Assembly (NCBI RefSeq): GCF_017916325.1
Contig: NC_090156.1
Coordinates: 676,001-740,000, forward strand
Direction: 5' to 3'
Length of the DNA: 64,000 nucleotides
DNA from: Leishmania martiniquensis
Lineage: Eukaryota; Euglenozoa; Kinetoplastea; Trypanosomatida; Trypanosomatidae
A program made the translations under genes and the position numbers. Shown one piece after another: positions 26,575 through 49,164 of the stretch. The notes beneath the pieces were generated by a model. The model was not told the origin of the DNA. It ran no database searches and saw only the letters and a list, made by a program, of their open reading frames with translations. Every line of letters starts with the position of its first letter. The stretch's first letter is position 1.

Positions 26575-27138
26575 TTTTCCTCTCGCGACGTGCCCGTTGT
26601 ACCATCGATCGTGAATTCACCCCCACTCTACCGCGGGCCTGTTGCAGGCTCATCGCGTAGTGTGAAGCAGCAACAGATACGCGCCCCACAGCAGTGCCGG
26701 CACAGTCATCTGAGCACAGTCTCTGCCTCAAACGCTTCCCACTGTCTGGTGAGCAGGTCGCCCCATAGCCACATCCAGTATACCAGCCGACACCTGACGC
26801 GTTCCTTCGCCCCTCCCCCTCCAGGGCGACTCACGCTCTCCACACGGGTAGGCAGCGAGGAGGGGCAGGTGAGGAATATTCGAGTCACCTTGACACTCTA
26901 CCTCCCATATGGGTCGTGCAGAAGTGTTCACCATTGCACTTGACTCCAACGCAACGCCACCCACGAGCTGGCCGCCAACATCAGTAGCGATGCATCGCCA
27001 CTGCTCTCCCGACTTCACAGGGGAACGGCCCCACCATCACCAAAAGTGGCTCGACATTGGCAAGGGCAGGGGCTTCGGGGCCTCCTGAGAATGGGCCACT
27101 GGGCCATATGATGCCCCGGATTCAGGCATCCCCTGCCA
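26575..27138 (-). repeat. Left copy of a 564-bp inverted repeat (SIDER2-like)
   Basis: This is the reverse complement of 39693-40256. Every part compared by eye is identical over 564 bases; the ends are set by the first mismatches. The size matches the roughly 0.55-kb SIDER2 retroposons of Leishmania, and the element ends in a short A-rich stretch (GAGAGGAAAA). It lies in the 3' region of the PUF gene in sense orientation. No target-site duplication is obvious. Confidence 0.85.
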
Positions 27139-27629
27139 TCGGTGTGAAAGAAGGAAGGGACAGAAAAAGAGGAGGGTGGCAAAATCACGTGAAGCGGACC
27201 TGAAGCGAAAAAAGAGATGAAAGGAAATGAGGCAAAGAAAAAATGAACAGAATATTTCGCTGATGGCTTCCAAATGGACGTATTCACGCACAGTTTAATA
27301 GCCAATATGCACAAACGATCCACTTTCACTTACCCCTTCCCCGCTTGCCACTTCTCGCGTAGACATGAAGGGGTCACTCCATTGTGTCCTCTTCCATACC
27401 CCGCACCCACTTTTGAGGAAAAAGAGGCCTCACGGAGGGGGAGAGGGTACCTCACAGAACACTCGAGACGCACGCCCGTCATAACCAGTGGTTCTCGATA
27501 GACTGTGGGGTTCCTTTGTCACATGTTTCGTCTTGTCAATCAGTCTTGTGGCAGTGAAGGCGCTAGAAGCGGCAAAAAAGCGCTTTTTCTTCCGTTGCTC
27601 ACAGCCGGCCGTCAGCACCGATAGCGGGA
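27139..27629. other. 3' UTR proximal to the PUF gene
   Basis: No gene seen. It begins right after the PUF stop codon (reading leftward) and runs to the repeat. Confidence 0.4.
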
Positions 27630-29354
27630 CTACGATGTCTGCCATGGCGTCGGGCGATGATAATGCTGCCGCTGATCTGCACCGCCCAAGTAATGTCGCC
27701 CGTAGTTGGAGGGGCGGTCAAGCTTAACATGCAGACTGCCCCCGCTCCCTTGGCAAACAGCAACCTCGTAGTCACGGTGTGCGTGGAAGTTGTTGCTTTC
27801 CATCTTCCGTGCAACAGCCTCGATCTTGCCTTCCATCTTCTTCGCGTACGGTGCATTCTTGATCAGCGGCATAAAGGGGCGAATGGCGTTTACCAGTTGC
27901 TCCGCGTGCGCCGGCGTGATTATCGTGAGCGCCGTCTGCAGGACGTAGTTACCGAAGTCGTCTTGAATGAGGTGAGAGATGATCTCAGGGTTGCACATCT
28001 CTTCAACGTACATGACCTGCACCGGTTTTGAGGCACCACGCAGCACCTTCTCCATCACGTTGGAGCTGAACTTGTTCATGGACAGCGGCACGAGGTGGGG
28101 AAGGAAGGCGAGGGCAATAGTATCGTTTATCTTGCTGTCGTTCGCCTCTAAGACGTACTGGAGGACGTAGTTTCCGAACGGATCCTGGACAATTTGGAGA
28201 CAGCAAGCGAGCACCTCATCGATGAGGGCAGCCTTCTGCCGAGGTGAGGCGTATTCGAGGCAGCGCTGCAGCACACAGCACCCCTGCTTGTTCTTAGCAA
28301 TCGACACGCAGTCCGTTGCGACTGCCTTGTAGATGTACTCCTTGTCGTCAAAGTCGAAGCGCTGAAGCACTTTTTGAATCACATGGTTCCCATGCGCATC
28401 CTTGACTAGCCTAACAACATCTTTGGCGAGCGCCTCGCAGATAATCTCCATCTCCTCGCGAGTCGAGATAGTCTCGATCATCTTCTGTACACTAAACGTA
28501 CCATGCGGCGTGAGGGCAATCCTGCAAATCTGTGGTGCCGCCACGATGGCGACCTTGAGCCGCACATCATTTGGCATTATGTCAAATAGCTTTTGAATCA
28601 GAAAATTCGCATATTGGTCTGTCATTAGCTCCCCAACATGCGGAATAATCTCCTCCATGATCACTTGCACCGCCTCATGGTCGAAATTCGTGTCTAGCCA
28701 CCGCTGCAGGTAGCGGCAGCCGTGCTGATCCTTCGCGGTTTCGTACACTTTGCCTCGTAGGCTGTCGATACTCACGGCACCGTTCTGGGAATACTTGCTG
28801 CCATTTCCTGGCCAGTCATTGTAGCCTCCACCCATCATCATGTCCTGCGAGGCGAGCACCTGTTTTTGCATCATTGTGTCACGCACCGGCATACTGTTGA
28901 CCTCTGTGGCCGTCATGTGGCTCATCCGTCCTGCACTCATCCCCCGGTTTCCTGCGCCAGGGGAGGGGACATACACCTCATTACTGCTGTAAATTTTTGG
29001 CGTGCGGTCGTGCTGGCTGCTGTAAGCGCCATTGAAGTGGTTGCTACAGCGGCGCTGCGGTGGACTCTGCACTGGCGTGTGCGGAATACCGATGTTGTGC
29101 AAGGAAGCGTTGATTGGCGTGTGGTTCTGTGGCTGCCAAGGGGCAGCATTCGTGAGCTGGTGCTTGATGGGGGAGCTCAACTCTGATGCACTTAGCGGGG
29201 ACGGTGTCGCAAACACTTGCGAGCTCTTGGTGTACTTTCCTGGAGGCTTTGGCTGCTGCGCTGTGTCCTCCGTGTTCACGACATACTGCAAGATCTCCTC
29301 AAGGTTATTGCACCCCTCCGCCCTGTACTCATCTTCGTGCACCGTCCAGGCCAT
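27630..29354 (-). CDS. PUF1: Pumilio/PUF RNA-binding protein
   Basis: This encodes 574 residues from the ATG at 29354 (MAWTVHEDEYRAEG). The first 190 residues are low-complexity and rich in Ser, Pro, Asn and Gln. Eight PUF repeats follow (about residues 195-545). The RNA-reading positions can be seen in each helix: GCRYLQ, ANFLIQ, GTFSVQ, GNHVIQ, GCCVLQ, GNYVLQ, SSNVME and GNYVLQ. By the known PUF code these predict a UGUA-containing target. PUF proteins bind mRNA 3' UTRs and control stability or translation, which matters greatly in trypanosomatids because genes are not individually promoted. Its neighbour on the strand-switch side is the MCU-family gene. From memory this pairing matches T. 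brucei PUF1, hence the symbol. Confidence 0.9.
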   Translation of the reverse strand: MAWTVHEDEYRAEGCNNLEEILQYVVNTEDTAQQPKPPGKYTKSSQVFATPSPLSASELSSPIKHQLTNAAPWQPQNHTPINASLHNIGIPHTPVQSPPQRRCSNHFNGAYSSQHDRTPKIYSSNEVYVPSPGAGNRGMSAGRMSHMTATEVNSMPVRDTMMQKQVLASQDMMMGGGYNDWPGNGSKYSQNGAVSIDSLRGKVYETAKDQHGCRYLQRWLDTNFDHEAVQVIMEEIIPHVGELMTDQYANFLIQKLFDIMPNDVRLKVAIVAAPQICRIALTPHGTFSVQKMIETISTREEMEIICEALAKDVVRLVKDAHGNHVIQKVLQRFDFDDKEYIYKAVATDCVSIAKNKQGCCVLQRCLEYASPRQKAALIDEVLACCLQIVQDPFGNYVLQYVLEANDSKINDTIALAFLPHLVPLSMNKFSSNVMEKVLRGASKPVQVMYVEEMCNPEIISHLIQDDFGNYVLQTALTIITPAHAEQLVNAIRPFMPLIKNAPYAKKMEGKIEAVARKMESNNFHAHRDYEVAVCQGSGGSLHVKLDRPSNYGRHYLGGADQRQHYHRPTPWQTS

Positions 29355-29918
29355 TTTGGATAAGGAGCGTGTTGCCGTTTCCAAACGACGTGAGTTACTC
29401 AGACAAAATCAAAGCGAAAATTGTCCCTTAAGAAAAAATCAACACGAACGAGAACGCAATTAAGAGCAGAGGGGTACAATCGTGTCCTTTGTCAGCCAGC
29501 CTAACAGTACGGCTTGCACTCGCATCGATGGGGCAGACAGCACCGATAGAAAGCCGAGGGCACCACCAAGCAGCAGAGCAGGCAGGGGAAAGTGCGCCAG
29601 AAGGAGTGGAAGTTCGGGAGGATGTTGGACACTTAGAGAGCCGCATAGATGGCAGGTATGTATGCCTCTGAGAGGAGCGCCTTTGTTAGCCCAGCAGGAG
29701 AAGTACATCTTCCTTTTTTTTTACGAGCTCACGTATCAAATTCGTGGGATAACCGTTTCAAGCTGCATCAGCCGCCAGCGCTTGGAAATTTCGTTTGCTG
29801 TGTGATTTGTCGCCCCACTTGTTTTGCGGCCCATATTGTACAGAAAGCCCTTTGCATGAGTACGAAGTTCGCAAGGCACGTGAAAAAAAACACGCACACG
29901 TATGCCACATGACATGGC
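29355..29918. other. Intergenic
   Basis: This holds the leader of PUF and the short 3' UTR of the MCU-family gene, with a T10 run at about 29717-29727. Nothing else seen. Confidence 0.4.
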
Positions 29919-30675
29919 TCACCAGGGGTGTGAGCAAGCGCTTTGTGTTTTCGCCGCCTCCTCAACCATCTTTGAAACGCGCCCGTCGTCGATGGCAATA
30001 ACCGTCTGCAGCTCCTGCATAGTCTTCATATCGCGTATCGCCTCCTTGGCGTCCACGCGCCGCACGCTCAGTTCTCTTACGAGCAGATGTGGCACAAAAA
30101 TGTCGCCAACGCTTTCGTACGAGTACTCAGTGCGAGAGAAAGTAGGCATACGCGCACAAGGCCGTGGCAGTCGTCGCAAAAAAAAAAGTGACCGGCTCCA
30201 TCACATCCCATCCGTACACCTGAAACTTTAGGTACGCCAGCACCAGCATCTGAGTAGCGCTCCCGAGCGCTGTCAATGCCCAGAACTCTCTTTCGCGGCG
30301 CACCGCCCTCTCTACCGCTGGTGAGGCCTGCTCGTTGAACGCGCAAGCAGATTTAGAGAGCGAGTGGTACAAAGTTGCGAGCCTTTTGCTTGCTACCGAT
30401 ACGAGAGGGAGGCCACTTTTCAGATGCACAGCGTCGACGACAGCCTTAACGTCAGTATACACATACTCATCCACCTCGACAATCATCTTGGCTCCTTTGA
30501 GAACATCTACGTACTCCGCCGCCTCCGCATTTGACATCCGAAATCGTGATGGGGTTAGGTGTCCCTCTGTCAAAAGAGCCATAAAGGCATCTTTAGGAAG
30601 AATTTTCTTGCCACAGAGGTCAATGGCCCGGCGCGCGCACAAGGCTTTGCGCAAAAAAGTTTCGGTCATCCTCAT
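29919..30675 (-). pseudogene. MCU-family mitochondrial calcium channel subunit with an apparent frameshift
   Basis: The first frame runs from an ATG at 30675 (MRMTETFLRKALCARR, presequence-like) to a TGA at 30127. It contains a first membrane span (WALTALGSATQMLVLAYLKF) and the MCU signature GWDVMEPVTFFF, where the Asp and Glu form the pore's selectivity filter. Just after the second span (CAYAYF) the frame stops. The expected MCU tail (SRTEYSYES, then a charged helix) continues in a second frame that ends at 29919. A one- or two-base change near 30130-30160, or a length error in the A10 run at 30178-30187, would explain this. It may be a real lesion or a sequencing error. The locus is beside PUF and proteasome alpha-2. 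From memory the T. brucei counterpart is MCUb. Confidence 0.75.
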
Positions 30676-31103
30676 GTCGGCAATTCCCTGCTCGACTTGA
30701 GAAGATGAGCCCAGAAAAATGAAAAGGAAGCAAAACAGAAGAGGCATAAAGGTTCATCAAGTGCTCGAAGAGCTCGACGGCGTACTGCATATGAGGGATC
30801 TACGCTCAAAAAATGCTCGCTGCCGGCATACGCGGGAAGCACGCGAGCTTCATCTGATGAAGCAGAGGGCAGTCACACCTTCTCATTACAAATCAGTAGG
30901 GTCAAGAAACAGGCTCGATCGCTTTTCTTTTGCTCCAAGCACAAAAGTGGAATGCGGGCACCAGGGAGAAGAGGGCGGGAGGCGTGATCATGGTGACTTG
31001 ACCAGAAACCATAGTTGAAACAGATGACACTTTCAACAAAACGTTTGTTGCACAACCCCGAAGTCTATATACTTTTCGCTATGCGGCATCATGCACATCC
31101 TCA
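30676..31103. other. Intergenic
   Basis: Apart from the acceptor tract, this is the short 3' UTR of proteasome alpha-2. Nothing else seen. Confidence 0.4.
30696..30745 (-). promoter_or_regulatory. Putative spliced-leader acceptor of the MCU-family gene
   Basis: On the minus strand a long T/C-rich tract (CTTCTGTTTTGCTTCC and onward) ends in CTCAAG about 20 bases before the ATG at 30675. An upstream in-frame ATG at 30747 lies before this tract and is therefore unlikely to be used. Confidence 0.55.
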
Positions 31104-31799
31104 CTAAATCTGGTCCAGATAATCGTGCAGCTGATCGCTGCTCAGGATTTCGAAACGCTTATCTACAACACGTCCCACCTGAGTGTTTTCTGGCGTCATC
31201 TGACCATCAAAGCCTTCCTTCAAGGTCAGCAATGCGGTGTGCACAGCATCCTCCAGCTCGATGTCCGCAGTGTAACGCTTTTCAAGGAATGCCTTCGCAT
31301 CTGAGCTTCCAGTGCCGATTGCCGTTGCCTTCCACGCCCAGAACGTGCCGCTGGGGTCCACCTGATATAAATGGTAGCCGTTAGCATCCACACCTGAGAC
31401 CAGGAGAGAGCAGCCAAAAGGCCGGACACCGCCGGACTGGGTAAATTCCTGATAGAGAGCGCTGATCTGTCGTACAAGCTGGCTGATCGGAATGGGCTCG
31501 TGATACGTTAGCTTATACTGCTGGCAGTTCTTTCGTGCTGAGTCGATAAGAACACGGCAGTCCGGGCCCATGCCACTGTACGTGCAGCCGACATGCTCAT
31601 CCAAGACAAAAACCTTCTGTATCGATGAAGCATCCACCAGGGTAGAGGAAGCTTTCTTCTTCGCAGCAATGACGACACCATCCGTAGCCTTTACACCCAG
31701 CGCAGTCGTCCCCTTTCCGGCCGCTGTCGTGGCATATTCAATCTGAATAAGTTTTCCCGAAGGGCTAAACGTGGTCAGACCATAGAATGCCTCCGTCAT
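31104..31799 (-). CDS. PSMA2: 20S proteasome alpha-2 subunit
   Basis: This encodes 231 residues, the normal length. The N-terminus has the alpha-type signature (YGLTTFSPSGKLIQIEYA) that forms the gate and the H0 helix. KASSTLVDASSIQKV, GPDCRVLIDSARK and RPFGCSLLVSGVD are typical of alpha-2. Alpha subunits form the outer rings of the 20S core and are not proteolytic. Trypanosomatid proteasomes are conventional 20S particles capped by 19S or PA26. It is read toward the MCU-family gene, with a 3' gap of about 430 bases. No anomalies. Confidence 0.95.
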   Translation of the reverse strand: MTEAFYGLTTFSPSGKLIQIEYATTAAGKGTTALGVKATDGVVIAAKKKASSTLVDASSIQKVFVLDEHVGCTYSGMGPDCRVLIDSARKNCQQYKLTYHEPIPISQLVRQISALYQEFTQSGGVRPFGCSLLVSGVDANGYHLYQVDPSGTFWAWKATAIGTGSSDAKAFLEKRYTADIELEDAVHTALLTLKEGFDGQMTPENTQVGRVVDKRFEILSSDQLHDYLDQI

Positions 31800-32562
31800 T
31801 TTCAGTCACGGAGCTGATCTCCTTTTTTTTTCAGGTGAAAATTGAGATATAGCTCTGCCTGTAGAGTAACCTGTACCGTTTACTTCACAACCTATGTATG
31901 CGGAAGTAGCAAGTGTAGGGAAGAGGAACGAATGGCTACTGTAGTGCTTAAAATACAACCGCGCTAGATGAAACAGGTAACAACTTTCATCGTTGTTATA
32001 AGGTTGTGTCACAGTTTTTTTTTGACAATGTCAGGTGAGGGGTCAAGAGATCTGGAAGAACTGCACAGCTAGTGAAACAGCTCATCATGAATAGGCAAAA
32101 CCACGCACTTGGCCCTCAAGAGTTCGCCCGCGCATCCGCCAGGGTATTGAAACTATCTTCCTTTTTCGTCAACGCCTAGAGCATGGAATAGCTTCGCATC
32201 TGTTATTGAATGCTGCACCAGCTTGGAGTGTAACCACGCTCGCGCACTCAACAAGCTTTTGACTCTCTCACGATTCGTGCGCAATAACCACTCTATGTGA
32301 AAATCTTTTCTTTTCCCCCTCATACTTGACTAGCATAACCGGAAAACTAACCAAAACCAAAGAAACCACGACAACTACTTGACGCTAAAAAGAAGGCACC
32401 TCTCGTCTCCTTGCCTGAAAAGAAGTCCTACGCTGATTTTTTTTTGATGACCTTTTGGCCCAGACATACAAAAAGTAAAAGGCTAACGATCAGATTATGT
32501 TTGAGCGCTGGCAACTGAAGACCCAAAGGCACGATGGGCACTAATAACTTTACACTCAGCGG
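31800..32562. other. Intergenic with T runs on the plus strand
   Basis: T runs of 8-10 occur at about 31822-31831, 32013-32022 and 32436-32445 on the plus strand. The region is more AT-rich than its surroundings. No gene or repeat seen. Confidence 0.4.
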
Positions 32563-33036
32563 TTACGCTGACACTGGCTTCTTCCCCAAGACAAACATAT
32601 CATGAAGTATTGGCGCCTTCTCACGCCAGTCCGCTGCATCGGCATCGTACAAAGGTTCGAAGTCTCGGTCTAGCCAGTATTCATACGCACCCTTTCGGTT
32701 TTTCTTTACTGGCTGGTAGAGCGGCTCAAACTCCTTCCATGGCTTTACGCCGTAGAGAACAGTGTGGTCAAAGTGGCCAAGGGCGCGCTTTTCCTCCCAC
32801 TTCTCCAGCCAGGTCTCATGCATCATGCGCTCGACATACCAACGCATCTTTTTGCACATCGAGTGCTCCTCACCCCAGTTTCCGATGCAATGGAGCCACT
32901 GGTAGTAGGCCAGAATGCCGTTCTTCTGCTTGTTATTCGTTGCACAGAAGCGAGGGTCGCTGAAATCACTGAAGTGAGGCATTGCCGGCATCTCCTCACG
33001 CTGGATTTTGTACTTCCTATGATCTTCGTGCGGCAT
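32563..33036 (-). CDS. COX6: Cytochrome c oxidase subunit 6 (Cox6b-like, trypanosomatid)
   Basis: This encodes 157 residues from the ATG at 33036. The centre resembles the Cox6b/CHCH pattern: F-C-A-T-N-N-K-Q-K-N-G, then Y-Q-W-L-H-C, GEEHSMC and WLEKWEEKRALGHFDH. These Cys normally form disulphides in the intermembrane space. A 50-residue C-terminal extension (YEYWLDRDFEPLYDADAADW) is typical of the kinetoplastid version. It is a nuclear-encoded subunit of respiratory complex IV and has no classical presequence, as usual for CHCH proteins. It is the second firm gene from the strand-switch region. Confidence 0.85.
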   Translation of the reverse strand: MPHEDHRKYKIQREEMPAMPHFSDFSDPRFCATNNKQKNGILAYYQWLHCIGNWGEEHSMCKKMRWYVERMMHETWLEKWEEKRALGHFDHTVLYGVKPWKEFEPLYQPVKKNRKGAYEYWLDRDFEPLYDADAADWREKAPILHDMFVLGKKPVSA

Positions 33037-33454
33037 TTTTTTGGATGTTGTAGTCGGCGGATATTGTACTTCGCGAAGATGAAGCTAACGAGGCATACAC
33101 TTGTAGGTGATATACACACAAAAGAGGCGAGATAGTTCGTGGCCGCCAATATTTGCAGATATGTTCAAGCAAGCAAGGATTCAAAAGAGTAGTGTCACCT
33201 GTAGAGATATTTTGCCGCAATTGCGTTAGTATGGCCGCTGCATTTTGTTCTCTCAAGCATCTTTTGTGAGGACAGCATAGCGAGAGAAGATGGCTATCGC
33301 ATAAACTAGAGCAGCACACGCTCTCATCCAGGCAGCATCATAGACATGGTTGGCCGCGCAACCCGAATGAACGCAAAGTGCGTACACTTGTTTTTTTTGT
33401 TTTGCCTTATGAACGAAAAAGGAAAAAAATAGGCCGATTACGATTTAGAGACAC
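33037..33454. other. Intergenic
   Basis: This is the leader of COX6 and 3' UTR of eL32, with a T8 run near 33390-33400. No other feature seen. Confidence 0.4.
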
Positions 33455-33856
33455 CTATTGGTTAGCGATCTTGCGCAGCTTCGCGTTCCCGTTTGCCAGA
33501 CGCACATCGAGCTCCAAAGCCTTGCGTACAATAGCCTTGCGCTTGCAGGCACCGACGGTGTGCGAGATGACACCAGCGTACTTGCGGTTCTGCATTACGA
33601 GCATGTACAGGTCCTGCACATTGTTGATAGGAAAATTCCGAAAGCCCGAGGGAGTGATGTACTTGGTGGCGCGGTCGCTACCATAACCTTTGTTGGGCAT
33701 CGCCTTCTGGCCCTTGTAGCGGCGGCGCACCGGGGAGTCCTCGCCGCGTGGCTTGCGCCAGCTGGAGCTCAGCTGCGGGAAGAGCTCATAGCGGTGGCGA
33801 GTGAAGCGCTTCGTGCGCTTCTTCACGATACGCTTCGAAACGAACGGCTTAACCAT
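33455..33856 (-). CDS. RPL32: 60S ribosomal protein eL32
   Basis: This encodes 133 residues, the usual length, from the ATG at 33856 (MVKPFVSKRIVKKRTKRF). Highly basic, with the family signature SSWRKPRGEDSPVRRRYKG, then MPNKGYGSDRATKYITPSGF, and a C-terminal part with VISHTVGACKRKAIVRKALEL. It is a structural protein of the large ribosomal subunit. It is the first firmly identified gene of the leftward cluster, directly beside the strand-switch region, a position often held by strongly expressed genes. The upstream extension of the frame to 33877 does not begin with ATG. Confidence 0.95.
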   Translation of the reverse strand: MVKPFVSKRIVKKRTKRFTRHRYELFPQLSSSWRKPRGEDSPVRRRYKGQKAMPNKGYGSDRATKYITPSGFRNFPINNVQDLYMLVMQNRKYAGVISHTVGACKRKAIVRKALELDVRLANGNAKLRKIANQ

Positions 33857-35505
33857 TTTGGTGTGCTGTAATGGCACTGTCGCATATGGTGAGAGAGTTC
33901 ACAGGCGATGAAAAATGAGGAAGAGAGGCGGCCAAGAGGTGAAAAAAAGACGCGAATATCCATCAAGAAGAGGACAATTTTCGTTGAGGTGCAATGCAGA
34001 AGTAAGCAAGGATGGTGAGCATGATACGCACGGGCTTCTGCCCCGTAGAAGGGAAGACTCAGACTCACGTTAGACGATTTTTTTCATTCTAGAGCCAGCA
34101 TTCCACACAGTTTTCATAGATAGCAGAGCTACTGCTGAAAAGCTTTTGATTGGGCTTTGTCGGCTTGCCATGCAACAATTAAGCTCTTCTTCTACGCCAG
34201 CTTGGTTGATGAAGGCTGGGAACGATGGGCTTCACATTTCTGCGTAGGTGGGTATTCGCGTCTCGAAGCAGAGAGACAGATGGTTAGCGATTACCTGTCA
34301 GTTTACTCTTGCGTCCTGTTTTCTTTGCTCTATGGGCGTACGGTTTCCGGGTTATGGTGTCGAATTGAAGTCGACTTGCAACGGCGAAAAGGGCAACTCT
34401 ATCGACTGCAGTGGTCACAGTAATGCAGCCTTTGCAGCATTGAATGAAGAACACCGGAGCATCATCACCTGGGTATATATCGCTGCTCATGCAATGACTA
34501 ACGAGCCGAGCACTCCAACCCAGAGGGGTAAGAAGAGAGCAGACTCTTCGTTTGTAGGTGAGGCATAGCTGACCATAGCGCGTGCTGCACCGCTGACATA
34601 TTTCGATGCCACCAATGTTTGAAACTGTACCCAGCTCTCGGCAAAAGAGACAAAGCTGCTTTGATGGCTCCATTTGGCGGCGAAGCGAAAGCTGAAGCAA
34701 TACAGATGCGCAGAAATGAGAGGCGCGAAAGAGTTGTAAGATATCATTAGAGAAGCACCTTCAACAAGGGTGCAAGCATTATTTTGTACGGTGCCGCAGG
34801 CGATTACGTTGCTGACTTCCCACAGAAGCAAATCGCCCTCAGTGCTACATGCACGCGATAGCCACCCTGGCTCTTTGAGCCTCTCATTCAATGGCATGCG
34901 AGAGAAGATTAAAAGATTTATTCTTTCATCAACGAGTCCTGGAGGGGGGGGCAGGCACATAAGGCACTGAGGCTATACGAAAGCTGTAAAGCTTAGGAAT
35001 CCCGCCACCAATGTCCAGTGCGAACGTCCTTGATACCTTTGCCGCACAGCGGAAACGGAAATAGAGAAGGGAGAGGGGGGGGTCAAAATTTTCGCCGTCG
35101 TGATGCTCATATTATTACGGCTGCTTCCCATCTCTTTGAAAAGAAAAAAAAAAACGTTTTGGAGGTGAAGAGGAAGGGGGGGGCGCAGAAAAACGCTCTC
35201 TCAGCTACTTCGCTTTCGCGTACCATTCCATGAAGTTGCTGCGGCTCTCACCTACCGTCTCTTCCTCTCCTGTTTCCTCGTACATACTGAAGCGTCTGCT
35301 GTGCGAGCCGAGAAAGTGGCAGCACAGCGCCACGATTTTTAACGCTTTCATGTATCTTTCGCTCGACCTCAGGTTTACCTACTGACAATCTTCCCCTTTT
35401 ATTGTTACACGCGTAGGCCAACCGCTTTGAGGAAAACCTCATTTTCTCTCCTTTAAATGGATTCCAAAGAAATTAATTGATACTTTTTAAACATCTTTGG
35501 CTACT
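33857..35505. promoter_or_regulatory. Divergent strand-switch region, presumed bidirectional Pol II start region
   Basis: All firm genes to the left are on the minus strand and all to the right are on the plus strand, so transcription must start here in both directions. In trypanosomatids such regions carry histone variants and acetylated histones (established knowledge) and lack a TATA-type promoter. G8 tracts lie at 34944-34951, 35075-35082 and 35176-35183, and an A11 tract at 35144-35154, all on the plus strand. A small minus-strand ORF (34284-34673) may be the first gene of the leftward unit. Confidence 0.85.
34284..34673 (-). CDS. Possible small zinc-ribbon protein inside the strand-switch region
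   Basis: This would encode 129 residues from the ATG at 34673 (MEPSKQLCLFCRELG). It has C-L-F-C, 13 residues, then C-Q-R-C, followed by a basic region, and later QCCKGC. The C-terminus is strongly basic (RKPYAHRAKKTGRKSK). The sense strand upstream is pyrimidine-rich with a TTCAG about 20 bases before the ATG, as for a trans-splice site. No family is recognised. It could be chance, because the protein is short and the spacing of the Cys pairs is its only clue. Confidence 0.35.
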   Translation of the reverse strand: MEPSKQLCLFCRELGTVSNIGGIEICQRCSTRYGQLCLTYKRRVCSLLTPLGWSARLVSHCMSSDIYPGDDAPVFFIQCCKGCITVTTAVDRVALFAVASRLQFDTITRKPYAHRAKKTGRKSKLTGNR

Positions 35506-36024
35506 ATGCCGCCCTCGAAGGAGGTCGCTGATCAGAGTCGGAAATTCGGCTTTAAAGAAACCCGTGAGCAGTTCCAGCAGCGCAAGAGGCAAGAAAGAGA
35601 CCTCAAATGGAAGGAAAAGCTGTCCAGAGAGGATCTCAGTAAACTGCGTCTGGAGTTGGAGTCTTTGAGCAGAGCCCGTTTTTTGGCACCTCAGCAAAAC
35701 GAACGTAAGCGCCTTGTACATCGCATGATTCAGGACCTCGAGGCGATAAGTAACAAAGAACCCGAGAAGGAGGCACCTCTCACAGCCAGTACACTGTCGC
35801 CCGTGGACTCGGATTCGGATGATGATCTATTTTTAGCGAGAGGCACCGCTACAAGTGACGAGCACAGAGGCCTGTTTGTGCCGCGCTCGATCCGCAGGAA
35901 GCAAGTGGAAAAAAAGCCCGAGAAAAAAACACCTCAGGAAATTGCTGAAGAGGCGGAAAAAAAACTTTTGGCTACTTTGCAGGACGACCACGATCTTGAC
36001 TCGTTTCTCGATTCCCTCCAATGA
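35506..36024 (+). CDS. Small charged protein, possibly WBP11-like
   Basis: This encodes 172 residues from the ATG at 35506 (MPPSKEVADQSRKFGFKE). It is rich in Lys, Glu, Arg and Gln, with a helical N-terminal half, an acidic segment (SDSDDDLFLA), and a C-terminal part with LFVPRSIRRKQ and the end DLDSFLDSLQ. The F-V-P-x-x-[IL]-R-x-[RK] motif followed by an acidic-hydrophobic tail resembles the C-terminus of the splicing factor WBP11, though the proline-rich middle of WBP11 is absent. The match is by eye and weak. It is the first gene of the rightward cluster. Confidence 0.6.
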   Translation: MPPSKEVADQSRKFGFKETREQFQQRKRQERDLKWKEKLSREDLSKLRLELESLSRARFLAPQQNERKRLVHRMIQDLEAISNKEPEKEAPLTASTLSPVDSDSDDDLFLARGTATSDEHRGLFVPRSIRRKQVEKKPEKKTPQEIAEEAEKKLLATLQDDHDLDSFLDSLQ

Positions 36025-36560
36025 AGATGTGTCATCTGCTGGTGTGCTCGCCTGAAAGTACAGCACCCATTAGTACCGCAGGGAGCGATAGAAAAAGTTT
36101 TTATTCGAGACCACAGAAAAAGTTGTACATCACCACAAGCGCTTCACACATGCGTTTTTCTGCGTGGTTTCTCATTTCAGAGATTGGTGGCAGGTCTCTC
36201 GTGAAGTACAGGATTCTTGAGCCAGCGCTGAAGCTCAACAGGCTCGCAGAAAAAAATGAAACTATGTTTGTTGAAAAAGTGCGCTTTTGTGGGGGCCCAA
36301 CTTTCACGAAACAGAAGATAGCTACCATGCTGACTTACTTTCCTTTAGATTGGTTTGAGATTAGCTAATGCAACCTTCGTTGAAGCCCGTATGAGCTGTG
36401 AATTGCGCTCCTTCTCTGCAACCGACTGCGTAGCACAATCAGCCATTCTCTTCGCTTCTCCAGTTTTACGGAGGCACTCTGCTACTTTCTATAGTACATT
36501 GCTTTGCCTTATCGTAGTCTCCTCTCTCTCACTATCTTGGTCCTTTGCCCTTTTATCGTT
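36025..36560. other. Intergenic
   Basis: The last 60 bases are T/C-rich and hold the likely acceptor of the next gene. Nothing else seen. Confidence 0.4.
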
Positions 36561-37697
36561 ATGTTTCTTGTGAATCACACCAATGTGAGTGGCAGCGTTG
36601 ATAATGCGGAAGATACTAGCATGAGCAGTAAGATTGCAGAGCTTTCGCGCAAAATACTATCGAAGGAGCGGTACTCGCAGATACTGGAGCAAGGAAAATG
36701 GCTGCAAGGACTACTCAAAGGGGTTTCTCTTAGTCTCGGGGCAAACGAGGCGGAGGAGTACGCTTCTCCAGTTGTATTGCCGTACGGCTCCATTGTCTCT
36801 GGCACTTCCTTCACAGACGGCGACGCGGATTATATTGTTTCCTTTCCCGTTACCTCGGAAAACGCTCGGCAAAAAGGCGCATACGTCATTGAACGTGAGC
36901 ACCAGGAAACGCTCCTTTCCGATATTTTTGCTCACATTCGAAAGAACAACAGCGATGTCGAGCTACATCCACAACGAATCTTTCGTGCGAGAGTGCCGAT
37001 CGTGCAGTACGTACGCAAAACTATTCAGCATAGCAGCAAATTTGATCTCTCTCTCTCGATAGACGGGCTGAAAAACACTTTGCTACTTCGGCAGTATATG
37101 GCAGGTGATCCTCGACTTCGGTTGGGGGTGCTAGGTGTAAAGCAATGGGGACGAGAGCACCGAATACTGAACGCTAGACGCGGATGGATCTCCCCGTATG
37201 CGCTGTCCATCATGTACATTCATTATATGAAAGAGACAGGCCGCACAACGCTTGTCTTTGATGAGGAAGCAATTAGTCAACGGGTCAATGCAATCGTCTC
37301 CGTTGCCGCGGAGGCCAATGGCGACCTCAGCCAAGTCGATGAATTTGCCGCAATTTTGCCTCTGCAAGAAGCAGATATTTCCCTCATACAAAGCGACGTC
37401 CTGGGCTTCTTCGACTTCTACGGTACCCCTGGGGGTTTCGACTTCGATGCTTCCGTAGTCGATATTCGCTCTCGGGAACGCTTCTTTACCAAAGACGAAT
37501 GGTGTGAGTCCCTAGGTGAGCTGGACGAGAAGGAGCGGTGGCACCTTCTCGGCCACCAGGTGTTCCTTATCCGAGATCCATTCGAGCCTCACAGCCTGGG
37601 GCGCAGTGTTGATTTTTTTCGAGGGGAGGATGTCAGAGAGAAGTTCCGCTCAGCTGCCGTGAAGAAAGAGCCGCTCTCACTTTTTGCATCGCTTTGA
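36561..37697 (+). CDS. KPAP2: Non-canonical poly(A)/poly(U) polymerase, KPAP2-like
   Basis: This encodes 378 residues from the ATG at 36561 (MFLVNHTNVSGSVDNAED), which lies just downstream of a T/C-rich tract. The earlier in-frame start is TTG. The nucleotidyltransferase motif is PYGSIVSGTSFTDGDADYIV, with its two catalytic Asp; a third acidic position lies in FDLSLSIDG. The central domain follows: VKQWGREHRILNARRGWISP and YALSIMYIHYM, which binds the nucleotide. Such enzymes add A or U tails to mitochondrial RNAs in trypanosomatids. Position beside CBF5 matches, from memory, T. brucei KPAP2. A TUTase cannot be excluded, because specificity residues were not assessed. Confidence 0.8.
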   Translation: MFLVNHTNVSGSVDNAEDTSMSSKIAELSRKILSKERYSQILEQGKWLQGLLKGVSLSLGANEAEEYASPVVLPYGSIVSGTSFTDGDADYIVSFPVTSENARQKGAYVIEREHQETLLSDIFAHIRKNNSDVELHPQRIFRARVPIVQYVRKTIQHSSKFDLSLSIDGLKNTLLLRQYMAGDPRLRLGVLGVKQWGREHRILNARRGWISPYALSIMYIHYMKETGRTTLVFDEEAISQRVNAIVSVAAEANGDLSQVDEFAAILPLQEADISLIQSDVLGFFDFYGTPGGFDFDASVVDIRSRERFFTKDEWCESLGELDEKERWHLLGHQVFLIRDPFEPHSLGRSVDFFRGEDVREKFRSAAVKKEPLSLFASL

Positions 37698-38271
37698 TCC
37701 CTAGTATGAGGTCAACATTTGTGGCAGAAGTCAAGTCTGGTGGTAGCTGGACTTGCTTTTTGCCAGAGGCGTTTCTGATGCGCAGACACATGTGCGAAAT
37801 AGTGTTTTTTTTTTCTCAGCAGGGGAGCTATGATACTTGTGCATCTGCGCTCGTATTTCCAGGAAATATTGACTAAAAAATATAAATGTGAGATGACGGG
37901 ATCCGTATCCCACTAGAAGTTCCTGTGCCGAGTACAGGAACCGTGCTTTTCAGCTTTTTTCGCTTGTGTTGTAGGTATCGCAAGCGAGACAAAAAAATGT
38001 AGATCTGTGACGACTCATTTCTCAATACTCCCTCACGGGTTTCGATATTTTCAATTGAACAGAAGAGACTTCAATGGGTGCTTACATGGGTGAAATGAAC
38101 CCTTGCTGCTAAAGTACAAATTCTTCTCTCTTTTTTCTCTGGAGCCTCTCTTCTATGTGCCTCGGATTTCTACCCATAACAAACGAAATACATCTTGTGA
38201 TGATGCAGCCGTTCTTCTCTGGCTCTCCGCATTCGCTATGACATAGTTCTGGGCTCTGCGCAGTTGTCGAA
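37698..38271. other. Intergenic
   Basis: The stretch is AT-rich relative to the window, with a T run near 37804-37814. No gene or repeat seen. Confidence 0.4.
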
Positions 38272-39429
38272 ATGCCACCAGTACTGGTCCCTACAGCTTG
38301 TGAAGATTGGTCTCTTAATGTCGACGATGAATCGACAAAGCGATTTTGGTGGAACAATACGTACAGTATTACCCTCTGGGAAGAGACGCTGAACATTACT
38401 AAGGAAGCGGAAACAATTACCGATGCCGATGTATGGTCCAAGTTTATTGAGCTTCAGTTGCGGTGTGCTTTCAAAATATGCAACATTTGCCATTCACCAG
38501 AGGGAAATACCGACATGAAAGTGTGCTGCTATTGCGGTAACACCGTTCACGACGCCTGCTCGGAGCCTGCAACTCTGGAGCAGGTCATGTGGAAGCCTGC
38601 TAATCTTGCATATGTAGATCACATGCGTGCCTGCTTTCAATGCCAAGCAGTGGAGTACACAGAGGGATTGGTTCCACAGTCGCCGAGCGAGTGTGATAAT
38701 GCCCGCCGTGCTGCCAAGAGGGCACTAACAATATCCGACGAGTATCCACCAGCTACCGTTGAGAGGATCCAAAGGCTTTTGCAGCAAGCCGGCACAGCCT
38801 CTGATGATGCAGCACTTCTGAAGGAGCTGCAGTCGCTCGTGCAAAGTTTTTTTCAGTCGCCGCAGTCGCTACAGTTCTTGCGCAAAGAGTGCATCGCCTC
38901 CAAGGGTGGCGGAGTAGGAGTGGTAGCAGCGAAGAACATACCGGCGCTCTCCATTATCGGCGTTTACCCCGGATACTTGGATTTTCTGAGTGGCGAGCAA
39001 GCCAAGTGTGGTCGCCCAGTACCCAAGTATGCTTTGATGGAGTACAACTGTGCCAATTACTTTAATGAGGTATTTGTAGAGCTTCAAACAACGTTCACGC
39101 CCTTTATAAATGAACCAAATGTCGACGAAAAGAGCAACTGTGCCTGGATTCAGGAGCCACACCGCAAAAACGGGCGACTGAGTGTCATCTGCGTTCGGGA
39201 CATTCAGGAGGGTGAAGAGCTGACGATCGGATACGGTCCTATTTATCCGCGCGCGTACCCGTACTGCTATGATGCGTATGCTTGTCACCAGATCGAAGGC
39301 CACGCAGCACATCCATGCTATTCGCTGTGGCACTGGCCTACCCTTCAGGAGGCAGACGCACGGTTTATCTGCTACATTGCCTACAATGAGAGCGAGGATT
39401 CGTATACTCTTTGGAACAGCGAGGCGTGA
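38272..39429 (+). CDS. WW-PHD-SET domain protein (putative lysine methyltransferase)
   Basis: This encodes 385 residues. A WW-like fold lies near residues 10-40 (EDWSLN, then FWWNNTYSITLWEE), although the usual final Pro is Thr. A PHD-type zinc finger follows at about 70-125 (CNIC, CCYCGNTVHDAC, CFQC). The SET domain spans about 205-325: SKGGGVGVVAAKNIPALSIIG, FINEPNVDEKSNC in the position of the NHS motif, and IQEGEELTIGYGPIYPR. A Cys-rich tail (CYDAYACHQ, HPCYSLWHW) could be a post-SET-like region. SET enzymes transfer methyl groups from SAM to Lys; the substrate is unknown. The protein could read and write histone marks, but a cytoplasmic target is possible. Confidence 0.8.
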   Translation: MPPVLVPTACEDWSLNVDDESTKRFWWNNTYSITLWEETLNITKEAETITDADVWSKFIELQLRCAFKICNICHSPEGNTDMKVCCYCGNTVHDACSEPATLEQVMWKPANLAYVDHMRACFQCQAVEYTEGLVPQSPSECDNARRAAKRALTISDEYPPATVERIQRLLQQAGTASDDAALLKELQSLVQSFFQSPQSLQFLRKECIASKGGGVGVVAAKNIPALSIIGVYPGYLDFLSGEQAKCGRPVPKYALMEYNCANYFNEVFVELQTTFTPFINEPNVDEKSNCAWIQEPHRKNGRLSVICVRDIQEGEELTIGYGPIYPRAYPYCYDAYACHQIEGHAAHPCYSLWHWPTLQEADARFICYIAYNESEDSYTLWNSEA

Positions 39430-39692
39430 TGATAGCTCAGCTTACTTCAAGAGGCAAAAGTTGTATGCCGAACGCGAGGTGAGAAAAGCTTCACCAGACA
39501 GAAGGGAAAAACAGTGCCGACCCGCGATCCTGAGCCCATCGAGAGAATCTTTCTCTAGGCGGCACTGCATCGTGCTTAAGAGTTTCGTCTCATGCCGCTA
39601 AAGAGCGGCCCTCTGGGTACTTGTCTGCAAGCTGAGGGTAACCCGTGCGCTGAAGTTCTTTGTTTTTCCTGAAATCAGCGAAGAGACTGTGT
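39430..39692. other. 3' UTR between the SET gene and the repeat
   Basis: No feature seen. Confidence 0.35.
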
Positions 39693-40256
39693 TGGCAGGG
39701 GATGCCTGAATCCGGGGCATCATATGGCCCAGTGGCCCATTCTCAGGAGGCCCCGAAGCCCCTGCCCTTGCCAATGTCGAGCCACTTTTGGTGATGGTGG
39801 GGCCGTTCCCCTGTGAAGTCGGGAGAGCAGTGGCGATGCATCGCTACTGATGTTGGCGGCCAGCTCGTGGGTGGCGTTGCGTTGGAGTCAAGTGCAATGG
39901 TGAACACTTCTGCACGACCCATATGGGAGGTAGAGTGTCAAGGTGACTCGAATATTCCTCACCTGCCCCTCCTCGCTGCCTACCCGTGTGGAGAGCGTGA
40001 GTCGCCCTGGAGGGGGAGGGGCGAAGGAACGCGTCAGGTGTCGGCTGGTATACTGGATGTGGCTATGGGGCGACCTGCTCACCAGACAGTGGGAAGCGTT
40101 TGAGGCAGAGACTGTGCTCAGATGACTGTGCCGGCACTGCTGTGGGGCGCGTATCTGTTGCTGCTTCACACTACGCGATGAGCCTGCAACAGGCCCGCGG
40201 TAGAGTGGGGGTGAATTCACGATCGATGGTACAACGGGCACGTCGCGAGAGGAAAA
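39693..40256 (+). repeat. Right copy of the 564-bp inverted repeat (SIDER2-like)
   Basis: Apparently identical, as the reverse complement, to 26575-27138. It sits in the 3' UTR of the SET gene, upstream of CBF5, in sense orientation with transcription. Homology ends at GAGAGGAAAA on one side and TGGCAGGGG on the other. A frame of 96 codons (39813-40103) is open in both copies but is not convincing as a gene. The element is homologous to the diverged copy at about 2890-3480. Confidence 0.85.
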
Positions 40257-46550: not shown

Positions 46551-46556
46551 CCTTAG
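46551..46556 (+). promoter_or_regulatory. Putative spliced-leader acceptor, first proteolipid copy
   Basis: CCTTAG follows a T/C-rich tract, about 90 bases before the ATG at 46647. The identity with the second copy begins at this CCTTAG. Confidence 0.5.
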
Positions 46557-46646
46557 CTTCCAACGTTGCATTAGTGCCTATCAGCCTCGACAGCGCTATA
46601 CGCACGCTCATCCCTTCTTTTACCATAGGGAACAAGTCTTTCAGCT

Positions 46647-47216
46647 ATGAAGTACCAAATTGCAAGCGTTGTGGCTGCCGCCGCGGTGTGCGGCGGCGTC
46701 GCTGCCGTGTCGTGCGACGACAAGTACCCGCAGTCGGCAGCCTTCTTCGGCTCGATGGGCTGCGCGTCCGCGCTGATCTTTGCCAATCTGGGGTCTGCCT
46801 ACGGAACGGCCAAGTCCGGCGTCGGCGTTGCGCACCTGGGCATCTTGCACGCCGACCGCATCATGCGTGGTATTGTTCCGGTGGTCATGGCTGGCATCCT
46901 TGGCATTTATGGGCTGATTGTGTCCGTGATTATCAACAACAACATCAAGACGGATGACAACTCGTATTCATCGTTCTCGGGCTACCTGCACTTTGGCGCT
47001 GGTCTGGCTGCCGGCCTGTCGTCTCTCGCGGCCGGCCTGTCGATCGGTATTGCTGGCGACGCGTCTGCGCGCGCGTACGGTAAGCAGGAGAAGATCTTCG
47101 TTGCCATGATTCTGATGCTCATTTTTGCAGAGGCGCTGGGCCTGTACGGCCTCATCATCGCGCTTCTGATGAACAACACGGCTGGAAAGGTGGCTGGCGG
47201 CTGTCAGCAGGCGTAG
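46647..47216 (+). CDS. V-type ATPase proteolipid subunit c, copy 1
   Basis: This encodes 189 residues. Four membrane helices form a duplicated hairpin pair: FFGSMGCASALIFANLGSAY, GIVPVVMAGILGIYGLIVSV, FGAGLAAGLSSLAAGLSIGI and the last with IFAEALGLYGLIIALLMNN. The Glu in the last helix (about residue 162) is the proton carrier of the V0 ring. Compared with the usual c subunit, about 25 hydrophobic residues are added at the N-terminus (MKYQIASVVAAAAVCGGVAA); these resemble a signal peptide or an extra span. V-ATPases acidify acidocalcisomes and endosomes. A second copy with the same coding sequence lies 1946 bases downstream. Confidence 0.93.
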   Translation: MKYQIASVVAAAAVCGGVAAVSCDDKYPQSAAFFGSMGCASALIFANLGSAYGTAKSGVGVAHLGILHADRIMRGIVPVVMAGILGIYGLIVSVIINNNIKTDDNSYSSFSGYLHFGAGLAAGLSSLAAGLSIGIAGDASARAYGKQEKIFVAMILMLIFAEALGLYGLIIALLMNNTAGKVAGGCQQA

Positions 47217-47218
47217 CA

Positions 47219-48496
47219 GCTGGTACACGTACTGTTGCGTGGCGAGGTCTCTTCTTCTCTTACCTGTGCGCGCTGGCGCTAGCGTGCGTCTGTATAAGTA
47301 ATGGTGTACCTGTGTGCGCCCCTTGATGCGTTGCTGTCGATCGATGGGTCACTTTTGCCTTTAGCGGGCAATGCGCACACGACTGATGGTGGCGCTGAAG
47401 CACGACGCCGAGCGGCATTGCTCTCTTTGCTAATAGGGGGCTTCACGCAGAAGCATTGTCTCTACTTGCTTCGAGTCGCTTCCAGCTGCCCATCCACTAC
47501 GAGCGTCTCGTTTTGATGTTACACGATGCCTGGTACTGCAAGAAGAGCAGATATACACTGGTAGCTAGACGGCAGTCCAGTGATGTGTGCACAGGCGTTT
47601 TTTTTTTAGCACACACACACATATATATGGAGATGAGCGAGTAGGGGCGTGCTACTTTTTTGATGCGTGTTGCTGCTGTACCTCAGATGCATTCCACGCT
47701 CCTCTCTGATTCCTGTCACCACAACCCCATCTTCGATCTCTTCCTTACTTTGCATAATGAGTATGGTGCACCGATCGGAAGAAAGCACAGTGGAAGGAAG
47801 GGAAAGGAAAGGTGAGGGGGAGTGATACGAGGATGCGGAGGCGTGTACTCTGAGCGCGCAGTGCATGTTTGTGTCTGTGAGCCTGTGGCTCCGCAGGTGT
47901 GACTGTCGTTGCCTCCATCCTTCTGCAGCTGTTTACGTTTTGCCGATTGTCTCTGTGGTGCCCTTTTCCCCCTTCAACAACATTTATTGCATTAGCGTCT
48001 CTTGCCTCTTCTCTGTGTGTGTGCGCCTTCTGCGTGGGGGCGATCGATTACCGGCCTTTTTTGTCCTTCCAAACGACCGAAGCAGGCAAGCAAAAACAAT
48101 TAAAGGAAAAAACGACCGGCGCGATGCACACGTAGACGTGTGCCAGACTCGCAGACCCATGCTGTGAGTCTGCTAATGGTGGACACACACTTTTGCTGTT
48201 GAGGGCGCCCCAAATTTTGATCAGGTAAGCCACTCGTGAGTGGAAACGAAAGACGCTTATGTCTCTGTTTGCCAGACAGTCGCCGAGGCCAGCTTCTTCC
48301 TTCTCTCTCCATGCGCATGGCTTCTCCCCTTCACTGATTCTTCTGATGCGAGGACCCTCTCCCTTTTCACCTGCGCGATTCTTCTCCCTTCTCTTGTTCC
48401 GCAATTTTTTGCTCTCTCGTGCCCTTTGGGTCACGTGGTCGCGCAGTAATCTGTCGTGGTAGCAGTTTCTCGGTGCCCTACTTCCCCTCGCTCTCT
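47219..48496. other. 3' UTR and spacer of proteolipid copy 1
   Basis: This is 1.3 kb of non-coding sequence with an AC/AT run at about 47610-47628 next to a T run. It is the copy-specific 3' UTR, unlike that of copy 2. Confidence 0.45.
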
Positions 48497-48502
48497 CCTT
48501 AG
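48497..48502 (+). promoter_or_regulatory. Putative spliced-leader acceptor, second proteolipid copy
   Basis: CCTTAG, preceded by TCCCCTCGCTCTCT. It is the first shared sequence with copy 1 and lies about 90 bases before the ATG at 48593. Confidence 0.5.
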
Positions 48503-48592
48503 CTTCCAACGTTGCATTAGTGCCTATCAGCCTCGACAGCGCTATACGCACGCTCATCCCTTCTTTTACCATAGGGAACAAGTCTTTCAGCT

Positions 48593-49162
48593 ATGAAGTA
48601 CCAAATTGCAAGCGTTGTGGCTGCCGCCGCGGTGTGCGGCGGCGTCGCTGCCGTGTCGTGCGACGACAAGTACCCGCAGTCGGCAGCCTTCTTCGGCTCG
48701 ATGGGCTGCGCGTCCGCGCTGATCTTTGCCAATCTGGGGTCTGCCTACGGAACGGCCAAGTCCGGCGTCGGCGTTGCGCACCTGGGCATCTTGCACGCCG
48801 ACCGCATCATGCGTGGTATTGTTCCGGTGGTCATGGCTGGCATCCTTGGCATTTATGGGCTGATTGTGTCCGTGATTATCAACAACAACATCAAGACGGA
48901 TGACAACTCGTATTCATCGTTCTCGGGCTACCTGCACTTTGGCGCTGGTCTGGCTGCCGGCCTGTCGTCTCTCGCGGCCGGCCTGTCGATCGGTATTGCT
49001 GGCGACGCGTCTGCGCGCGCGTACGGTAAGCAGGAGAAGATCTTCGTTGCCATGATTCTGATGCTCATTTTTGCAGAGGCGCTGGGCCTGTACGGCCTCA
49101 TCATCGCGCTTCTGATGAACAACACGGCTGGAAAGGTGGCTGGCGGCTGTCAGCAGGCGTAG
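48593..49162 (+). CDS. V-type ATPase proteolipid subunit c, copy 2
   Basis: The protein has the same sequence as copy 1 (189 residues). The identity block is 668 bases (48497-49164 against 46551-47218) and covers the presumed leader, the whole coding region and two bases after the stop. Recent duplication or gene conversion would explain it. The two genes should give mRNAs with the same leader and coding region but different 3' UTRs, which in trypanosomatids allows separate regulation. The Glu in the last helix and the N-terminal hydrophobic leader are as in copy 1. Confidence 0.93.
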   Translation: MKYQIASVVAAAAVCGGVAAVSCDDKYPQSAAFFGSMGCASALIFANLGSAYGTAKSGVGVAHLGILHADRIMRGIVPVVMAGILGIYGLIVSVIINNNIKTDDNSYSSFSGYLHFGAGLAAGLSSLAAGLSIGIAGDASARAYGKQEKIFVAMILMLIFAEALGLYGLIIALLMNNTAGKVAGGCQQA

Positions 49163-49164
49163 CA

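What the first reader, a model, noticed from the sequence alone, without database searches (positions are those of the whole stretch)
26575..40256. Perfect 564-bp inverted repeats bracket the strand-switch region so that an inversion would be transcriptionally neutral
The two repeats (26575-27138 and 39693-40256) are reverse complements with no mismatch seen by eye. They flank a segment holding the left-arm genes from PUF to eL32, the divergent start region, and the right-arm genes up to the SET protein. Because transcription diverges inside the segment, flipping it would still leave all genes pointing outward, co-directional with the neighbours. Most inversions in a polycistronic genome would be harmful; this geometry would not be. 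It could therefore be a natural inversion polymorphism.
Basis: partly seen in the sequence, partly recalled or inferred. Interest (0 to 1): 0.75.

Follow-up and report, generated by a model that had tools for sequence, protein, structure and literature searches.

The report
Twin retroposon copies around a promoter
Two identical copies of what looks like an old, common Leishmania mobile-element relic sit face to face on either side of a transcription start region; such pairs are known sites of DNA rearrangement in these parasites, but nothing examined here shows that the DNA between them is ever flipped.

Summary
ORFs of at least 300 codons are 47 of 47 minus left of the switch and 8 of 8 plus right of it over 261.5 kb, so a flip would keep genes pointing outward.
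The arms are not a unique device. They belong to a degenerate ~0.55-kb dispersed family matching SIDER retroposons: 12 elements in 261.5 kb of this chromosome arm, 10 of 12 sense to transcription. Sense-biased elements on opposite sides of a divergent switch come out inverted by default. Near-identity of neighbours is not unusual: 3 such SIDER pairs in 261.5 kb, and local sets on other chromosomes.
Published L. major gene numbers fit the orientation seen here. No flipped form was found; reads and sister strains could not be examined. Rearrangement at inverted repeats, and one SIDER-flanked inversion, are published. A useful correction: one novel junction alone cannot tell an inversion from a ~96-kb linear amplicon. 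New member of a known kind; the polymorphism is untested.

The parts
26575..27138 (-). left SIDER-type element, sense to left-arm transcription, 491 nt downstream of the PUF ORF
   Evidence: identical reverse complement of 39693-40256; family membership by nhmmer
39693..40256 (+). right SIDER-type element, sense to right-arm transcription, 263 nt downstream of the SET ORF; ends GAGAGGAAAA
2851..3365 (-). third, diverged SIDER-type element in the window, sense to the left arm
   Evidence: nhmmer E 8.7e-21 against the 564-nt element
27630..29354 (-). PUF (Pumilio) gene, PUF3 orthologue
   Evidence: Pfam PF00806 E 5.4e-54; hits named pumillio protein 3
30127..30747 (-). mitochondrial calcium uniporter family gene (MCUb by position, inferred)
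   Evidence: Pfam PF04678; LmjF.21.1690 is MCUb
31104..31799 (-). proteasome alpha-type subunit (alpha 2 by position, inferred)
   Evidence: Pfam PF00227, PF10584; LmjF21.1700 is alpha 2
33455..33856 (-). ribosomal protein eL32
   Evidence: Pfam PF01655
33857..35505 (.). divergent strand-switch region (limits approximate)
   Evidence: change of coding strand and codon-position GC
36561..37697 (+). poly(A) polymerase-like gene (KPAP2 by position, inferred)
   Evidence: Pfam PF22600, PF03828
38272..39429 (+). SET-domain protein gene
   Evidence: Pfam PF00856
40469..41761 (+). CBF5/dyskerin pseudouridine synthase gene, first gene outside the right arm
   Evidence: Pfam PF08068, PF01509, PF16198, PF01472
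43143..44054 (+). ATP synthase F1 gamma subunit gene, synteny anchor outside the segment
   Evidence: Pfam PF00231

Best explanation
The arms are two SIDER-type retroposon relics lying in sense downstream of the PUF and SET genes, on opposite sides of a divergent strand-switch region of a Leishmania (probably Mundinia) chromosome 21. Sense orientation on two outward-transcribed arms makes them inverted by default. Their identity is most likely due to recombination between close neighbours (gene conversion, or crossing-over that inverts the loop), as for other neighbouring SIDERs here. They are a typical two-member substrate for rearrangements known in Leishmania: rare inversion of the 12.6-kb loop, or fold-back linear amplicons. 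Shown: sequence, family relationship, geometry, local near-identity of other pairs. Inferred: gene conversion, and any rearrangement at this site.
For: Family: with the 564-nt element as query nhmmer finds diverged relatives over roughly 370-525 nt at window 3365-2851 and on C10, C26 and C31; an iterated profile finds 12 elements in C21:496001-757500, 10 of 12 sense to transcription. Published SIDER2 features: mean 550 bp, G+C rich, subfamilies of at least 85% identity confined to neighbours, target-site duplications not clear in L. infantum (PMC2424063, passages); sense SIDERs about 4-fold commoner, mostly in 3' UTRs (PMC2689281, passages). Concerted neighbours: of 10 repeat pairs of at least 200 nt in the 261.5 kb, 3 are near-identical SIDER neighbours: 530631/537103 inverted 97.9%, 556921/568143 direct 99.7%, and this pair 100%. 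A C26 query also hit local sets on C26 (3 at 100%), C32, C34, C11 and C24. The pair's best other relative on this arm is 69% over 151 nt, so the two were homogenised or copied recently. Function of such repeats: in L. major 242 of 507 repeat groups have two members, and PCR gave products for 40 of 48 tested rearrangements on chromosome 23, 15 of them at inverted repeats (PMC4028189, passages); for PTR1 linear amplicons inverted repeats 3-10 kb apart were used most (PMC4256157, passages).
Against: The two 79-nt SIDER signatures could not be tested against a reference; an internal-duplication test was negative or weak (2 of 100 controls reach the score in one of four elements; 18, 48 and 52 of 100 in the others). 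No clear target-site duplication flanks either copy. G+C of 60.5% is below the 66.5% mean published for L. infantum SIDER2. The identity runs exactly to both ends of the element, which recent copying of a whole element would also give. Gene conversion is not separated from duplication by any test here.
Confidence: 0.75

Rival explanations
1. One reading: the 12.6-kb loop with its strand-switch region flips between the arms and both orientations segregate in natural populations, because the flip is transcriptionally neutral.
For: Arms identical over 564 nt, above the 200-bp cut-off that PMC4028189 chose because recombination is more efficient above it; all genes would stay outward; a SIDER-flanked inversion is published for chromosome 32 of L. 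infantum (PMC2689281 section 8).
Against: No flipped form seen; L. major gene numbers fit the unflipped order; in T. brucei numbering the poly(A) polymerase KPAP2 (Tb927.10.160) is next to CBF5 (.170), as in the unflipped form but for the SET gene between them here. Only one assembly could be examined.
Confidence: 0.15
2. The arms matter mainly as an amplification cassette: fold-back at the pair gives a palindromic linear chromosome of about 96 kb, with the divergent start region in the middle, two copies of the 41.8-kb right end and chromosome ends on both sides.
For: C21 ends 41.2 kb beyond the right arm in a telomere-like tract; predicted size 96,170 nt; linear amplicons running from inverted repeats to a chromosome end are established (PMC4028189, PMC4256157, passages).
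Against: No amplicon data for this locus; the 12.6-kb loop is slightly beyond the 3-10 kb pairs used most often; read depth unknown.
Confidence: 0.15
3. One element was recently copied into the second site (late retroposition or template-switch duplication), so identity reflects age and not conversion.
For: Identity stops exactly at the element's ends and the flanks show no similarity beyond short chance-like matches.
Against: No target-site duplication at either copy; SIDERs are regarded as extinct (PMC2689281); the other two neighbour pairs share only part of the element (234 and 339 nt), as conversion tracts would.
Confidence: 0.15
4. The perfect identity is an assembly artefact, two similar copies made equal by short-read polishing.
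For: If this is the published nanopore assembly, it was corrected with Illumina reads (PMC8421402, passages); 564 nt is longer than usual Illumina reads (general knowledge).
Against: Other near-identical pairs in the same 261.5 kb keep differences (99.85, 99.74, 99.71, 99.57, 99.40, 98.3 and 97.9%).
Confidence: 0.07

Closest known systems
SIDER1/SIDER2 short interspersed degenerate retroposons of Leishmania
   Same: about 0.55 kb, G+C 60.5%, dispersed and degenerate, mostly sense, downstream of coding regions, likeness to neighbours
   Different: signature sequences not tested; this pair is 100% identical, beyond the 85% that defines subfamilies
Repeat Alignment Groups (RAGs) with inverted members, PMC4028189
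   Same: low-copy, chromosome-specific non-coding repeats over 200 bp, inverted, kb apart, 41 kb from a chromosome end
SIDER-flanked inversion on chromosome 32 of L. infantum, PMC2689281 Figure 4C
   Same: inverted segment bounded by SIDERs
   Different: that is an observed difference between species; here only the potential is seen

Membership tests
SIDER retroposon family | about 550 nt, G+C-rich dispersed element | tested here: met
   564 nt, G+C 60.5% against 55.6% for the window; relatives on C10, C26, C31 and C21
SIDER retroposon family | many degenerate copies genome-wide | tested here: met
   12 in 261.5 kb of C21; further partial hits on C10, C11, C24, C26, C30, C31, C32, C34, C36; no full census possible, and with the third window element found only itself
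SIDER retroposon family | sense orientation in intergenic/3' UTR positions | tested here: met
   both arms lie downstream of stops and in sense; 10 of 12 elements sense; UTR ends themselves not mapped
SIDER retroposon family | 79-nt trypanosomatid retroposon signature(s) near the 5' end | tested here: inconclusive
   no reference sequence at hand; internal duplication test weak
SIDER retroposon family | A-rich 3' end and target-site duplication in a minority of copies | tested here: inconclusive
   ends GAGAGGAAAA; best flanking matches 5 and 4 nt, chance-like
RAG (repeat alignment group) | non-coding repeats of at least 200 bp and at least 85% identity on one chromosome | tested here: met
   564 nt, 100%, two copies, both on C21
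RAG (repeat alignment group) | rearrangement detected at the repeats | not testable with these tools
   needs reads or PCR
Inversion polymorphism | both orientations present in a population | not testable with these tools
   one assembly only; L. major order fits the unflipped form

The most novel reading that the evidence does not exclude
Because SIDERs are sense-biased, identical neighbours are direct repeats inside a gene cluster but inverted repeats across a strand-switch region. So SIDER-mediated inversions in Leishmania would be channelled to switch regions, where they are transcriptionally harmless, and the loop here is a freely flipping neutral polymorphism invisible to short reads.
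Probability: 0.15. Interest if true: 0.6.

Novelty: new member of a known kind. Interest (0 to 1): 0.3.

Why it matters
If the loop does flip, it would be a case where inverted repeats rearrange a polycistronic genome at no transcriptional cost, and could help explain why some strand switches lie at rearrangement points. It also gives a simple way to separate inversions from linear amplicons: an inversion makes two novel junctions together, each one-sided linear amplicon only one of them, so a single-junction test at such a pair cannot tell the two apart.

Tried and rejected
Considered and set aside: a unique inversion device or recombinase target (the arms belong to a dispersed family; no recombinase gene was looked for beyond the Pfam scan of 20 window ORFs); chance; a tRNA-associated repeat (ARAGORN found no tRNA in the window); identity as something exceptional (two other near-identical SIDER pairs on the same arm); an old inversion recognised by swapped target-site duplications (own flanks share 5 and 4 nt, crossed flanks 6 and 4 nt within 20 nt, all chance-like). 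Literature searches aimed at inversions of this kind: 13 papers, all listed; 15 of 27 listed; 15 of 62 listed; apart from PMC2689281 no listed title or abstract start is about a Leishmania inversion. PMC6143741 was listed for LmjF.21.1690, but its main text did not hold it. One search (six T. brucei gene numbers, at least two per paper) found nothing; one search asked for at least one, with .290 exchanged for .280. The gene numbers searched were recalled and then checked in papers; recalled and not checked: that gene numbers follow chromosome order, and that Tb927.10.290 is proteasome alpha 2.

Full report
What was checked. The two arms are exactly as described: 564 nt, 0 mismatches, no extension by even one base at any of the four ends. 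With one arm masked, the longest exact inverted repeat left in the window is 19 nt, and 20 Markov controls gave 14-20 nt. In the 32.3-Mb genome (41 contigs; the window is C21:676001-740000) these are the only two full-length places among 13 scored (lower bounds).

Where it is. The best named relative of the PUF protein is from Leishmania sp. Ghana LV757 at 87%; L. panamensis and L. major are at 80% (best 120 of 1508 listed). This points to the subgenus Mundinia. PMC8421402 (passages) describes five Mundinia genomes; that the window is L. martiniquensis or close to it is a guess, resting on the 87% distance. C21 (757,500 nt) ends in a telomere-like tract that is mostly the heptamer GGGTTAA, from 754,792 to the end. 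The N run 740001-745000 directly beyond the window is probably withheld sequence and not an assembly gap.

Geometry. Over C21:496001-757500, ORFs of at least 300 codons are 47 of 47 minus left of the switch and 8 of 8 plus right of it. The switch lies between eL32 (ends 33856) and the first plus-strand coding-like ORF (35506). The arms lie 491 nt past the PUF ORF and 263 nt past the SET ORF. A crossing-over between them would move the centre of the switch by about 2.5 kb (34.7 to 32.2 kb), swap the neighbours of PUF and SET, change only sequence beyond the repeat in their 3' regions, and leave every gene outward.

What the arms are. nhmmer with the single element finds a third, diverged copy in the window (3365-2851, minus, E 8.7e-21) and relatives over roughly 370-525 nt on C10, C26 and C31. 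An iterated profile finds 12 elements in 261.5 kb: 9 of 11 minus (sense) in the left cluster and 1 of 1 plus (sense) in the right, so 10 of 12 sense. Several of the 12 match only part of the profile. Scaled to 32.3 Mb this is about 1,500, of the order of the 1,853-1,986 SIDERs counted in three other species (PMC2689281 Table 1). Size, G+C richness, sense bias, lack of clear target-site duplications and likeness to neighbours match published SIDER2 features, though G+C (60.5%) is below the published mean of 66.5%. The 79-nt signatures could not be tested (inconclusive).

Why inverted and why identical. With sense elements about four times commoner than antisense, two elements on opposite sides of a divergent switch are inverted in most cases, so no design is needed. 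Near-identity of neighbours is not unusual either: among 10 repeat pairs of at least 200 nt in the 261.5 kb, three are neighbouring SIDER pairs, 6.5, 11.2 and 13.1 kb apart, at 97.9% (234 nt, inverted, inside a gene cluster), 99.7% (339 nt, direct) and 100% (564 nt, this one); two more rows are SIDER pairs at 73-74%, and the rest are tandem or dispersed duplications. Of the three, this one is the longest and the only one without a difference. On other chromosomes hits also come as local sets: three at 100% within 12 kb on C26, and pairs or larger sets with equal scores to the query on C32, C34, C11, C24 and C10; equal scores cover the aligned stretch only. Single hits were seen on C30, C31 and C36, and a search with the third element of this window found only itself, which shows how insensitive that search is. 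These searches pick similar copies by design and are not a census. The inverted pair at 530631/537103 is a useful contrast: its loop lies inside one gene cluster, so flipping it would reverse genes against transcription.

Mechanism. The best reading is local gene conversion of old elements, or inverting crossovers with the same effect; a recent copy of one element into a second site is not excluded, because the identity ends exactly at the element's ends and no test here separates the two.

Is there a flipped form? None was seen, and reads could not be examined. Published L. major numbers for MCUb (LmjF.21.1690), proteasome alpha 2 (LmjF21.1700) and ATP synthase gamma (LmjF.21.1770) rise in the order found in this window (passages of PMC6027440, PMC2374696, PMC9318571); the flipped form would put the proteasome gene before MCUb. 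This takes for granted that numbers follow position and that the window's Pfam-identified genes are the orthologues. In T. brucei KPAP2 (Tb927.10.160), CBF5 (.170) and ATP synthase gamma (.180) have consecutive numbers, and COXVI (.280), MCUb (.300) and PUF3 (.310) form another block (passages). Both speak for the present orientation being the older one.

Inversion or amplicon. The flipped chromosome has two novel junctions. A linear amplicon that duplicates the right end (96,170 nt: twice 41,808 plus the 12,554-nt loop) has one novel junction, identical to one of these two; a left-end amplicon has the other. This is my deduction; the passages of PMC4028189 that I saw interpret the inverted-repeat products as amplicons.

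Known or new. Amplification and rearrangement at such repeats, the SIDER content of many of them, and one SIDER-flanked inversion between species are published. This pair is a new member of that kind, distinguished by perfect identity and by straddling a divergent switch.

Noticed in passing
C21:496001-757500 (loci L014-L033 and the window): Twelve SIDER-like elements in 261.5 kb scale to about 1,500 per genome, whereas PMC12278014 lists 116 INGI copies for L. martiniquensis and 977-1,671 for most other Leishmania species in the passage seen, with L. chancei (435) and L. tarentolae (543) lower. If the window is from L. martiniquensis, library-based masking misses most of its SIDERs.
   Followed up: partly
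C21:754792-757500 (locus L016, contig end): The telomere-like end is mostly the heptamer GGGTTAA (378 counted in the last 6 kb, against 10 of TTAGGG, the Leishmania unit as recalled); a base-calling artefact or a variant telomere repeat.
   Followed up: partly
window 46551-47222 and 48497-49168: Direct repeat of 672 nt at 99.85%, 1.9 kb apart, overlapping two 189-aa ORFs (46647-47216 and 48593-49162), downstream of the S6e ribosomal protein ORF.
   Followed up: no
C21:662948-674684 (just left of the window): Tandem duplication of about 5.9 kb at 99.7% identity, with a related 1.17-kb piece at 632649-633816.
   Followed up: no
window 33857-35505: By gene numbers T. brucei carries both arms as blocks in one order (KPAP2, CBF5, ATP synthase gamma, then COXVI, MCUb, PUF3), so this strand switch may sit at an inversion breakpoint between Leishmania and T. 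brucei; T. brucei strands were not checked.
   Followed up: partly
C21:530631-537335: Inverted SIDER pair (234 nt, 97.9%) inside a single gene cluster, where a flip would reverse genes against transcription; a natural contrast to the pair studied here.
   Followed up: partly
C26:573266-585152: Three SIDER-like copies at 100% identity (as rounded) over 371-427 nt within 12 kb.
   Followed up: no
C21 (whole contig): The window's PUF protein is also recorded on a contig of 761,043 nt, while C21 as held here is 757,500 nt; the held contig may be trimmed or another assembly exists.
   Followed up: no
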